From Acidobacteriota bacterium (lineage in GTDB: Bacteria; Acidobacteriota; Thermoanaerobaculia; Gp7-AA8), in the NCBI GenBank assembly GCA_003223645.1, contig QHVT01000008.1, forward strand, positions 186,001-250,000: 64,000 nucleotides of DNA. Direction: 5' to 3'. The notes below the pieces were generated by a model. It saw nothing but the letters and a program-made list of their open reading frames with translations, was not told where the DNA came from and did not search any database. Within the stretch, counting starts at the first letter, position 1. Each line of letters starts with the position of its first letter. Below, in pieces: positions 56,793-60,991 of the stretch. Made by a program: the position numbers and the translations under genes.

Positions 56793-56845
56793 AGGATAGT
56801 CGAAGGCGGCTGCGCGGATGCCAGTGCGCGGCTACGCCGATGGCC

Positions 56846-56920
56846 ACATCCGCCATCTGCCATCCGCCATCTGCCATCTGCCATCTGCCATCCGCAAAGC
56901 CGCCATCAGCGAAGCCGCCA
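56846..56920. repeat. Heptamer array, family F (CATCTGC/CATCCGC)
   Basis: About nine CATCTGC/CATCCGC units plus GCCGCCATC words in the intergenic gap before the nucleoside phosphorylase-fold gene. Same units as at 60808-60991 and 50965-51184. Only one orientation is present. Confidence 0.82.
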
Positions 56921-57033: not shown

Positions 57034-58155
57034 ATGGAAAAGAATCGCTTTACCGATACCTATCGGACGCAGAACACCGGCAAGCCGCTCCCGTTGCCGA
57101 TCATCGATTGGACGCGCATCGGCTACACCGCGCCGACGGTGATCAGCGGCGAATACGACGGCTCGAGCGCGCCGCTGCCGAAGGCGGACGTCGTCGTCAT
57201 CACGTGGACGTCCGCCGAGTGGAACGCGTTCGACCACGTCTTCGTCAACAGCGGCTCGACGCGTTATCCCGACGATCGAGACTGGGAGCATGCGTGGCAT
57301 ACGTACAGCCGCAATGTCCCGTCGAGTATGACGTCCGACAATACGACCGCGCCTTTGTGGGGTCTCTATCGCGTCATCGAAATGAAGGCGTCGAAGAAGA
57401 AAACAATTCGCGTGCTGCTCTTCAAATGCGACACGCACCTGGCGCACCCGCCATACGCCAGCGGCCTCGAACAAATTACGAATCAGTTGATCGATGAGAC
57501 GGGCTGCTCCTGGATCTGGTCGATCGGTACCGCCGGCGGCGCGAAAGAATCCGAAAACCTCGGCGACGTCGTCATTACGAACGCCGGACACATTCAATTG
57601 AAGCTTTCGGAAAATCTCTCGTCGGGCCTCAACAATAAAACCGTCAAAGGAACGGCGTTCCCGTCGACGAAACTCTTCAACACCGTGCAAAGGCACTTCT
57701 TCTTCGACATGGCCACTGTCGTCACATGGCCGGTACTGAGCTCGATGCTGGAAGAGCTGCAGCAGCAGGATTCCGGCGCGAAGTCGCTGACACTTTCCGA
57801 TCTCGTCAATCCGCCGCTCGATCCGAAAAATCTCAAGCAATCGAAAATCCTTCCGAAAGACGGACAGCCGCTCCTGACCACCGACTTCTACTACATCGCC
57901 TCGGGGGCCGAAGCCGCGAAATGGTCGGTGCTGGAGATGGACGACGCGGTGATCGGCTACGTCGCCCAGCAGAAGAAAACGAGCTTCTGCTTCTCGCGCA
58001 ATATTTCTGATCCCATCGTGCCGGCCAAGGCCAAGGGCAAAACAATCGACAATTCGATTCGCGGAGATTGGTCGAGCGCGGTCTACACCCGCTTCGGCTT
58101 CTACACGAGCTTCAATGGAGCGCTCGCGACGTGGGCGGCGCTAACGGCGATGTAA
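57034..58155 (+). CDS. Nucleoside phosphorylase/nucleosidase-fold protein, 373 aa
   Basis: PNP/UDP-phosphorylase superfamily fold. KADVVVITWTSAEWNAF is the opening strand/helix of this fold, quoted as VVVITWTSAEW; SIGTAGGAKE with LGDVVITNAG is the IGTxGG/LGDV phosphate and base-binding core. Residue spacing matches conflict-system nucleosidases that are longer than housekeeping PNPs. No signal peptide. GGAG (57024-57027) supports the ATG at 57034 (an ATG at 57022 is also in frame). The next gene, a DNase II homologue, begins 14 bp after its stop. Might cleave free nucleosides, NAD+ or modified nucleotides; the substrate is unknown. Confidence 0.75.
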   Translation: MEKNRFTDTYRTQNTGKPLPLPIIDWTRIGYTAPTVISGEYDGSSAPLPKADVVVITWTSAEWNAFDHVFVNSGSTRYPDDRDWEHAWHTYSRNVPSSMTSDNTTAPLWGLYRVIEMKASKKKTIRVLLFKCDTHLAHPPYASGLEQITNQLIDETGCSWIWSIGTAGGAKESENLGDVVITNAGHIQLKLSENLSSGLNNKTVKGTAFPSTKLFNTVQRHFFFDMATVVTWPVLSSMLEELQQQDSGAKSLTLSDLVNPPLDPKNLKQSKILPKDGQPLLTTDFYYIASGAEAAKWSVLEMDDAVIGYVAQQKKTSFCFSRNISDPIVPAKAKGKTIDNSIRGDWSSAVYTRFGFYTSFNGALATWAALTAM

Positions 58156-58168
58156 GCAAGGAGAATTC

Positions 58169-59209
58169 ATGTCCCTCAGCGCAATCGGAGACAGCGGCAA
58201 AGCGGTCGACTGGTGGTTCATCTACAAAGTTCCGAAGGATGCGAAAGCGGCCGACAAGAGCGGCAAGCCGGCGACCGGCTTCGAGTACGCCTATTTCGAT
58301 TCCGACAGCAAAGCGCTGGCCGGCTCGAAACATCTGCTCAATGACACGACCAATGCACTGCGCCTGACGCTGCAGCAGCTTCCCGTCAGCGGTCATCCCA
58401 CCGTCGGCGTCGTTTATTACAACGACGAATATCCGTCGAGTTTGCACAAGACCAACAACGACGACAAGGGCCACTGCAAAGGCGTGCTCGCGTTCGACAC
58501 GGCAGCCAACAGCGCGATCTGGCTCCTGCACTCGACGCCACGCTATGCGACGCCCGGCTCCTTCGATTTTCCGTCGGACGAGCTCGATTATGGGCAGACG
58601 TTTCTCTGCATCACGCTGAAGGACGTCAAGACCGCCGAGGCGATTGCGACACAGATGCTGTCCCAGCAGGGACCGCAGGCGTACGGGCCCACACTGCCGA
58701 AAGCCGCGGGCAGCGTGTGGAGCGACCTCACTGCCGGAAAATTCACACTGTCGAAAACGCCGAGCGACATCACGTTCACGTCGAAGGCGGGCAACAAGTT
58801 CCGCAGCATCGCTAAGAGCCGCTTGTGGGGACAGGACCTCTGGAGCGACGAAGTCGGCGACGACCTCGGCGTGAATCTCGACGTCGAGTCGTGGCGCCGC
58901 GGAACGACTCCCTCGACGACCGACAGCAACAAGACAGACGACATCGTCGACGTCGTCGACGTCGATTTCGGTCCGCTGCAATTTCCCTATGCCTGGCCGG
59001 AGACGAAAGACCACGCCAAATGGGCGCAGTCGATCGAAACAACAGGAAAACCGGCCGCCGATTGGGTCTGCATCGCGGACATCAATCGCCAAACGTCACA
59101 GTCGAAGCGCGGCGGCGGCTCGATCTGCTTCCAGCACCCCGCATTGTGGAAATGCCTCGCACAGATCGATCAGGTCACGCCGCCGGAGTTGAAGAAGAAA
59201 ACGAAGTGA
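58169..59209 (+). CDS. DNase II-family nuclease lacking a signal peptide, 346 aa
   Basis: Clearly related to acid DNase II, the lysosomal enzyme of animals. The order of motifs is the same: GDSGKAVDWWFIYKVP near the N-terminus, VVYYNDEYP, GHCKGVLAFD with the first catalytic His102 and Lys104, YGQTFLCI, and C-terminal DHAKWA with His282 and Lys284, followed by CIADINRQTSQSKRGGGSIC. The two HxK motifs together form the phospholipase-D-like active site. Unlike animal enzymes there is no signal peptide: the family core begins at residue 8, so it is probably cytosolic. Downstream of the PNP-fold gene by 14 bp with AAGGAGAATTC upstream. Expected activity: metal-independent DNA cleavage. Confidence 0.85.
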   Translation: MSLSAIGDSGKAVDWWFIYKVPKDAKAADKSGKPATGFEYAYFDSDSKALAGSKHLLNDTTNALRLTLQQLPVSGHPTVGVVYYNDEYPSSLHKTNNDDKGHCKGVLAFDTAANSAIWLLHSTPRYATPGSFDFPSDELDYGQTFLCITLKDVKTAEAIATQMLSQQGPQAYGPTLPKAAGSVWSDLTAGKFTLSKTPSDITFTSKAGNKFRSIAKSRLWGQDLWSDEVGDDLGVNLDVESWRRGTTPSTTDSNKTDDIVDVVDVDFGPLQFPYAWPETKDHAKWAQSIETTGKPAADWVCIADINRQTSQSKRGGGSICFQHPALWKCLAQIDQVTPPELKKKTK

Positions 59210-59211
59210 GG

Positions 59212-59316
59212 ATTGTGGTGACCGCTGAGGATTGTGGTGACCGCTGCCCTCAGCGGTCACAGCCCGCCTATGGCGGCGCCAAGCGGCGCGACCGCTGAGA
59301 GCAGCGGTCGCCACAA
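59212..59316. repeat. Palindromic element, family L copy 2, multi-unit (GACCGCTG)
   Basis: Repeated GTGGTGACCGCTG, CAGCGGTCAC and GCGACCGCTG...CAGCGGTCGCC words. It begins 3 bp after the DNase II stop and extends into the 3' end of the convergent 59268 gene, supplying that gene's last codons. Confidence 0.88.
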
Positions 59317-59927
59317 GTTCTGCGCCAGTCTTCATCGAAGTCGTCCGCGTCATTGGATTCGCCATGCGTCATGGATGGGAATCCCAGCTCGTTCGCTGTC
59401 GCAATCCACGACCGCTGAAAATCGTCGCGCTGATGATGCGGCAGCATCACGCCTCGCGAATACAAATAGATGTGCAGCATCTCGCCCGCCCACGCGGCCG
59501 CCATGAAATCCGCGGTCGACGACGGCTCGTGCGGCATCGGCTTCCAACCAACCGGAATCTGCCACGGCGTCGGATTGAGAATGAGCGTGTACTCCTTCTG
59601 TTTCGCGTGATCGGCCGATGCGAGCAGCGTGAGGATGCCGGGCTCCGGCGCGCGCCCGATGCCCGGCTCGTTCAAATCCTCCGTCACGATCACGCGATAT
59701 TCGGGCGTGCTGAAGTATCGAAAAAGCTCGTGCCCGCGCGACGTGGCGGCCCAGCGAACGAATCCGTCGCGCGTCGCCGCCGACGTGTTGCGAATCTGCC
59801 GCTCCGTGAATCGAATCACGCCGTAATCATCGCGACGGATCGCCTCGCCGGCGAGAATGATTCCGGACGATTGCGCGGCAACCGACCACGCAACGAGCAG
59901 CATCGCGGCGACGAGAAGGGATCGCAC
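59268..59927 (-). CDS. Small secreted protein of unknown function, 219 aa
   Basis: A GTG at 59927 gives a signal peptide (MRSLLVAAMLLVAWSVAA, GTG read as Met); an ATG at 59903 would give a truncated one. The body (DDYGVIRFTERQIRNTSAA, RYFSTPEYRVIVTEDLNEP, LNPTPWQIPVGWKPMPHEP, AAWAGEMLHIYLYSRG) is not a family I know. The last residues, GDRCSQRSRRLAPP, are encoded by the family L repeat, so the original C-terminus was probably different. Divergent from the LytTR regulator. Confidence 0.6.
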   Translation of the reverse strand: MRSLLVAAMLLVAWSVAAQSSGIILAGEAIRRDDYGVIRFTERQIRNTSAATRDGFVRWAATSRGHELFRYFSTPEYRVIVTEDLNEPGIGRAPEPGILTLLASADHAKQKEYTLILNPTPWQIPVGWKPMPHEPSSTADFMAAAWAGEMLHIYLYSRGVMLPHHQRDDFQRSWIATANELGFPSMTHGESNDADDFDEDWRRTCGDRCSQRSRRLAPP

Positions 59928-60807: not shown

Positions 60808-60991
60808 TGGCGGATGGCGGATGGCGGATGGCGGATGGCGGAGAATACTGCAAGCTTGCCTCGCCATCTGCCATCCGCCATCCGCCATCTGCCTGACGGT
60901 ATGGGGCAGGTTTTCCAACCTGCCCCCCGGGAGGCAGGCTGGAAAGCCTGCCCCACACCGCCATCTGCCATCCGCCCTCTGCCATCCGTCA
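60808..60991. repeat. Nested element: family F heptamer arms around a family K palindrome
   Basis: GGCGGAT units (60808-60840), then CATCTGCCATCCGC units, then GGGGCAGGTTTTCCAACCTGCC...GGCAGGCTGGAAAGCCTGCC (60902-60958), then CATCTGCCATCCGCC units again. It fills the gap between the response regulator and kinase genes. Confidence 0.85.

What the first reader, a model, noticed from the sequence alone, without database searches (positions are those of the whole stretch)
58169..59209. Bacterial DNase II without a signal peptide
All signature blocks of animal DNase II are present in order, including both HxK active-site motifs, yet the protein starts at the family core and has no export signal. 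A metal-independent nuclease in the cytosol would attack the cell's own DNA unless controlled, which suits a suicide or defence role or release by lysis.
Basis: partly seen in the sequence, partly recalled or inferred. Interest (0 to 1): 0.7.

Follow-up and report, generated by a model that had tools for sequence, protein, structure and literature searches.

The report
Leaderless bacterial DNase II plus nucleosidase
A bacterial relative of the animal lysosomal enzyme that shreds DNA is made here without an export tag, as in all 71 intact relatives compared, and is read out together with a nucleoside-cutting type of enzyme, so this gene is a member of an already known bacterial group whose recurring gene partnerships look new.

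Summary
ORF 58169-59209(+) is a full-length DNase II (PF03265, 262 bits; 46% identical to the crystallised Burkholderia thailandensis enzyme) with both HxK motifs. There is no export signal: the in-frame DNA upstream holds only eight codons before a stop and no start codon. It is not unusual, however. All 71 full-length relatives fetched, from at least nine phyla, start without a signal peptide, and its absence in the B. pseudomallei enzyme was already published. Other leaderless DNase II genes are linked to leaderless phospholipase-C-like enzymes and to a UDG-fold protein, sometimes fused to it; several carry histone-H1-like tails. Best reading: a cytosolic, pH-latent DNA- and nucleoside-destroying unit, horizontally spread, probably used in cell death or conflict. 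Function is inferred. No known defence system, phage relative or immunity gene was found. Salvage and lysis-release or injection remain rivals. New member of a known kind.

The parts
58169..59209 (+). Leaderless DNase II (346 aa)
   Evidence: PF03265 262 bits; PDB 5i3e/5unb 268 bits; own genome has one copy
58472..58480 (+). First active-site motif HCK (residues 102-104)
   Evidence: H102 and K104 invariant in 71 of 71 sequences
59012..59020 (+). Second active-site motif HAK (residues 282-284)
   Evidence: H282 and K284 invariant in 71 of 71 sequences
58142..58168 (+). In-frame stretch upstream: stop TAA then eight codons with no start; contains the GGAGA ribosome-binding site at 58160-58164
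   Evidence: excludes a longer, exported form
57034..58155 (+). Partner gene: nucleoside phosphorylase/nucleosidase-fold protein (373 aa from ATG 57034; ATG 57022 also possible; mechanical ORF from 56818)
   Evidence: PF01048 27.2 bits, just above the cut-off of 25.1; predicted fold MTAN/PNP, best Z 11.9, rmsd 5.0, 188 aligned; conserved GTAGG, LEMDD and RNISD

Best explanation
The gene is a horizontally acquired, leaderless bacterial DNase II that stays in the cytosol as a metal-independent, acid-favouring endonuclease (HxK/HxK, phospholipase-D-like chemistry) and is close to silent at neutral pH. It is co-transcribed with a nucleosidase/phosphorylase-fold enzyme. When the cell acidifies, de-energises or is broken open, DNase II cuts DNA to 3'-phosphate fragments while the partner strips bases from nucleosides or nucleotides, so that genome and nucleotide pool are destroyed together. 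The most likely use is conflict: death of an infected or engulfed cell, or damage to whatever has taken it up. Shown: family, motifs, absence of leader, tight same-strand linkage, recurrence of the pair, predicted fold of the partner. Inferred: activity, pH latency of this protein, substrate of the partner, trigger and biological use.
For: Family and catalytic residues intact. No leader possible and none in the clade. Partner ends 13 bp upstream on the same strand; its homologues lie 6, 7, 28 and 74 bp downstream of DNase II in L064, L060, L065 and L004, and 1.5 kb away on the other strand in L044; these rows fall in four places of the DNase II tree, so the pairing, in both gene orders, is kept or regained. 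The partner is rare (3 strong carriers of 247 genomes of the phylum), so repeated adjacency is not chance. DNase II is absent from 17 other genomes of the family, including a congener, and the tree mixes phyla: horizontal spread. Related clusters add a calcineurin-type phosphoesterase, leaderless phospholipase-C-like enzymes, a UDG-fold protein adjacent or fused to DNase II, and kinase-AAA-GAF-GGDEF sensors; Lys/Ala-rich histone-H1-like tails in several members suggest binding to DNA inside the cell. PNPase-superfamily and calcineurin phosphoesterase domains are proposed nucleotide-directed effectors or signal makers in bacterial conflict systems (PMC7159879). Acid optimum and EDTA resistance of a family member: PMC4148230.
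Against: No PADLOC or PHROG match, no phage or IMG/VR relative, and the window around it is ordinary chromosome, so no defence-island signal. No immunity gene or dedicated sensor next to it here. Neighbours elsewhere include XDH-like, glutathione-synthesis, tyrosinase, ferritin-like and GMC enzymes that do not fit a pure DNA-destruction role. The partner's catalytic activity is unproven and its model is of middling confidence (pLDDT 63.6).
Confidence: 0.45

Rival explanations
1. Nucleic-acid salvage: DNase II, phosphoesterases and the nucleosidase break down DNA taken up or left in the cell, to recover phosphate, sugars and bases.
For: The partner is of the nucleoside phosphorylase superfamily; metallophosphoesterases, phosphatase/PLC-like enzymes and an XDH-like enzyme occur in related loci.
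Against: A secreted or periplasmic enzyme would be expected, and the secreted DNase II of the same phylum is a different subfamily with a signal peptide (L002, L003). Very sporadic distribution. Histone-like tails and UDG-fold fusions are odd for salvage.
Confidence: 0.25
2. Weapon released by lysis or injected: DNase II and its leaderless phospholipase-C-like neighbours are stored in the cytosol and act outside, for example in the acid phagosome of a grazing protist or as cargo of an extracellular contractile injection system (eCIS).
For: Acid optimum of a family member; neighbouring PLC-like and beta-repeat proteins also lack leaders; eCIS marker PF14065 in 16 of 51 carrier genomes including this one, against 13 of 199 genomes (including this one) in the window's phylum; within one genus (that of Mucilaginibacter locus L045) 11 of 13 carriers against 50 of 108 non-carriers, Fisher p 0.016.
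Against: 35 of 51 carrier genomes lack the eCIS marker; in this genome the eCIS lies on another contig; the protein has no N-terminal extension in front of the core that could serve as a packaging leader; genome size and kinship are uncontrolled in the association.
Confidence: 0.2
3. Relic or neutral passenger: an acquired DNase II without selected function here.
For: Isolated in its genus and family; long end branch in the tree (0.82).
Against: All catalytic residues, an intact reading frame, a ribosome-binding site and tight linkage with a recurrent partner.
Confidence: 0.08

Closest known systems
Burkholderia thailandensis DNase II (PDB 5i3e, 5unb) and B. pseudomallei DNase II (MacLea et al. 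2003, Gene 305:1, cited in PMC4148230 and PMC10249883)
   Same: Bacterial, full-length family, 46% identical, both HxK motifs, no signal peptide (for B. pseudomallei stated in PMC4148230)
   Different: The window protein sits on a long branch and has small insertions (about residues 177-185 and 291-297); here the partner gene lies upstream and ends with the phosphorylase domain, whereas in the related B. pyrrocinia plasmid the partner lies downstream and carries a C-terminal extension of about 580 residues
Animal DNase II (lysosomal acid DNase)
   Same: Pfam family and paired HxK motifs
   Different: Animal enzymes as a rule have a signal peptide and act in lysosomes; the bacterial clade has none
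MTAN / purine nucleoside phosphorylase / AMP nucleosidase superfamily (for the partner)
   Same: Predicted fold; GTAGG loop, EM(D/E) and R-N-I-S-D segments
   Different: Only 10-15% identical, with inserted regions and a 50-residue N-terminal extension; substrate unknown
PNPase-superfamily and calcineurin phosphoesterase effectors of bacterial conflict systems (PMC7159879)
   Same: The same domain classes recur beside leaderless DNase II
   Different: No MoxR, vWA, VMAP or GAP1-N component was noticed near the window gene; none was searched for systematically

Membership tests
DNase II family (PF03265) | Full-length match to the family profile | tested here: met
   262 bits against cut-off 23, positions 3-319 of 326
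DNase II family (PF03265) | Two HxK active-site motifs | tested here: met
   HCK 102-104 and HAK 282-284, H and K invariant in 71 sequences
DNase II family (PF03265) | Acid-favouring, metal-independent DNase activity | not testable with these tools
   Needs purified protein
Secreted or lysosomal DNase II (animal type) | N-terminal signal peptide | tested here: not met
   Only eight in-frame codons upstream and no start; hydropathy
Leaderless bacterial DNase II clade (B. thailandensis type) | Protein begins at the family core without leader, and groups with the clade | tested here: met
   the window falls with the 72 other leaderless rows, apart from the two secreted ones, although its exact place is uncertain because of its long branch
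Phosphorylase superfamily (PF01048), for the partner 57034-58155 | Profile match over cut-off and fold | tested here: met
   27.2 bits against 25.1; Z 11.9 to MTAN 4wkn. Weak by sequence, clearer by fold
Known anti-phage defence system | Match to a catalogued defence protein | tested here: not met
   No PADLOC match up to E 1
Toxin-antitoxin or effector-immunity pair | Adjacent inhibitor gene | tested here: inconclusive
   No recurrent small neighbour seen across the fetched loci; the nucleosidase-fold partner is not a typical inhibitor, but an inhibitory role was not tested
eCIS cargo | Host carries an eCIS, and the gene lies in or near it | tested here: not met
   35 of 51 carriers lack PF14065; in this genome the eCIS is on another contig (C5)
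Ternary or GTPase-centred conflict systems of PMC7159879 | MoxR/vWA/VMAP or GAP1-N with GTPase | not tested
   Only domain-class overlap noted; Pfam found no GTPase domain in the B. pyrrocinia protein annotated as GTPase

The most novel reading that the evidence does not exclude
Leaderless bacterial DNase II is the nuclease of a widespread, unrecognised cytoplasmic nucleic-acid-destruction module that has spread between phyla. In it a latent acid DNase, sometimes tethered to the chromosome by a histone-like tail, is combined with a nucleosidase, a UDG-fold protein or a leaderless phospholipase, and is set off by acidification or energy collapse: a bacterial counterpart of lysosomal DNase II in cell death.
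Probability: 0.25. Interest if true: 0.75.

Novelty: new member of a known kind. Interest (0 to 1): 0.42.

Why it matters
DNase II is treated as an animal lysosomal enzyme. A bacterial clade in at least nine phyla, uniformly without export signal and repeatedly joined with nucleosidase-, UDG-fold and phospholipase-type genes, gives direct, testable clues to what it does in bacteria, about which I found no paper in the library searched. If pH gating is confirmed, it would be a simple way to keep an enzyme that can cut the cell's own DNA harmless until the cell dies or is engulfed.

Tried and rejected
Upstream in-frame exported form: excluded. Phage or prophage origin: no match in INPHARED, PHROGs or IMG/VR. 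Defence island: no PADLOC match and an ordinary chromosomal neighbourhood. eCIS cargo: an association exists but most carriers lack an eCIS; kept only as part of a rival. Rest of the Burkholderia-type cluster elsewhere in this genome: the extended C-terminal part of the partner was not found; the second match was 37 residues. Relationship between the UDG-fold protein c5 and the C-terminal extension of the partner: hhalign gave none (probability 0.1); a stand-alone relative of the extension hit PF03167 below cut-off (15.1 bits, E 0.025), left as a lead. Pfam tally of 87 otherwise unclustered neighbours: no further strongly recurring family. Papers: the 2017 structure paper that I remember for 5i3e is not held, so nothing is taken from it.

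Full report
Observation. Both HxK motifs are at residues 102-104 and 282-284. In an alignment of 71 full-length sequences H102, K104, D281, H282 and K284, as well as N85-D86-E87, D304, R314 and several tryptophans, are invariant. The gene occurs once in its 6.38-Mb genome.

No leader. Reading upstream in frame from ATG 58169 there are eight codons, none a start, and then TAA at 58142. A GGAGA ribosome-binding site stands at 58160-58164. The lack of a leader is general: none of 71 full-length sequences, each taken from the first possible start codon, has a hydrophobic stretch of signal-peptide strength in its first 40 residues, while the two DNase II proteins of a different subfamily found in the same phylum do (L002, L003). 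So bacteria have two kinds of DNase II, one exported and one not. Absence of a signal peptide in B. pseudomallei DNase II was reported in PMC4148230, and bacterial DNase II itself in 2003 (MacLea et al., cited there and in PMC10249883).

Relatives and spread. A scan of one genome per species returned 80 loci from at least nine phyla. A tree with the two secreted proteins as outgroup puts the window protein with the leaderless clade on a long branch, so its exact neighbours are uncertain. In its own family 17 other genomes, including a congener, lack the gene, and in the phylum only two other genomes of 297 have any DNase II, both of the other subfamily. It was most likely acquired horizontally.

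Partner gene. It matches the phosphorylase superfamily just above cut-off (27.2 bits). Its predicted structure (pLDDT 63.6, pTM 0.71) matches MTAN and PNP enzymes (Foldseek E 2.5e-5; Z 11.9 to 4wkn with rmsd 5.0 over 188 residues). The loop GTAGG, the LEMDD stretch and RNISD, which correspond to conserved active-site segments of these enzymes (my knowledge of the superfamily), are invariant in six homologues. A homologue lies directly beside DNase II in B. pyrrocinia plasmid pBPJTT and in L060, L064, L065 and, on the other strand, L044. Gaps are 6 to 74 bp in four of these, and gene order differs between the window and the rest. These rows occupy four places in the DNase II tree. In the window's phylum only three of 247 genomes hold a strong homologue of the partner; the other two carry it without DNase II. 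Repeated tight linkage of two rare genes in both orders is the strongest functional clue obtained.

Other partners in the clade. Clustering of neighbours shows recurrent linkage with PF04185 phospholipase-C/phosphatase-like proteins, nearly all without leader (27 loci, 22 of them within about 1.2 kb), and with a roughly 430-residue protein, c5, that has no Pfam match but a confident predicted structure (pLDDT 83) in the uracil-DNA-glycosylase fold (Z 11.3 to 1l9g over 189 residues, rmsd 3.5). Foldseek alone was not significant (best E 0.019), and glycosylase activity is not implied. c5 is fused in front of DNase II in L074, L075 and L077. Kinase-AAA-GAF-GGDEF sensors, glutathione-synthesis enzymes, GMC oxidoreductases, an XDH-like enzyme, ferritin-like proteins and tyrosinase also occur. 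Several members end in Lys/Ala/Pro-rich tails; the one of L074 weakly matches a histone-H1-like family, and similar tails occur in Bacteroidota, Acidobacteriota and Pseudomonadota members. The window protein ends only in ELKKKTK.

How it probably works. Shown: intact catalytic residues, no N-terminal export signal, tight linkage with a nucleosidase-fold enzyme, and recurrence of that pair. Established for the family: acid optimum and EDTA resistance (a Trichinella member, PMC4148230). Whether this serves cell death in infection, defence against grazers or recycling of DNA is not decided by sequence. I favour conflict because of the sporadic distribution, the shuffling of partners, the DNA-binding tails and the overlap with domain classes of conflict systems (PMC7159879), with moderate confidence.

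eCIS lead. This genome and 15 of 50 other carriers have an eCIS marker, against 12 of 198 other genomes of the window's phylum; in one genus 11 of 13 carriers against 50 of 108 non-carriers. Kinship and genome size are not controlled, and most carriers lack the marker, so cargo status is not a general explanation.

Verdict. The recurrent, seemingly undescribed partnerships raise the interest to moderate.

Noticed in passing
L074:7468-10296, L075:8672-11275, L077:8624-11626: DNase II fused behind a UDG-fold domain (c5) and, in L074 and L077, followed by a long Lys/Ala/Pro-rich histone-H1-like tail.
   Followed up: partly
L057:13242-14549 and relatives (cluster c5): A protein family without Pfam match whose predicted structure has the uracil-DNA-glycosylase fold with an ACT-like N-terminal part; recurrent beside leaderless DNase II.
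   Followed up: partly
L026:11083-13260, L007:11323-12849 and 20 further loci: Phospholipase-C/acid-phosphatase-like proteins (PF04185) that, like the DNase II beside them, have no signal peptide.
   Followed up: partly
G000:C5:230035-234865 (own genome; L097): Two tandem contractile-sheath genes and a Pvc16_N gene: the genome carries an extracellular contractile injection system on another contig.
   Followed up: partly
G051:C19:50237-51268 and G063:C31:48100-49101 (L092, L093): Homologues of the nucleosidase-fold partner without DNase II in two genomes of the same phylum; both genomes also have the eCIS marker.
   Followed up: partly
L004:11131-14073, L060:11385-14285, L064:11072-13921: The partner's homologues carry a C-terminal region of about 550 residues with conserved cysteines; a stand-alone relative (L039) weakly hits the UDG superfamily (E 0.025). 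NCBI names the Burkholderia protein GTPase, but Pfam finds no GTPase domain.
   Followed up: partly
window 56840-56900, 60820-60900, 59210-59330: Short repeated spacer motifs between genes (GCCATCCGCCATCTGCCATC-like and ACCGCTG...CAGCGGTC-like) that mechanical ORF calling reads as long spurious ORFs.
   Followed up: no
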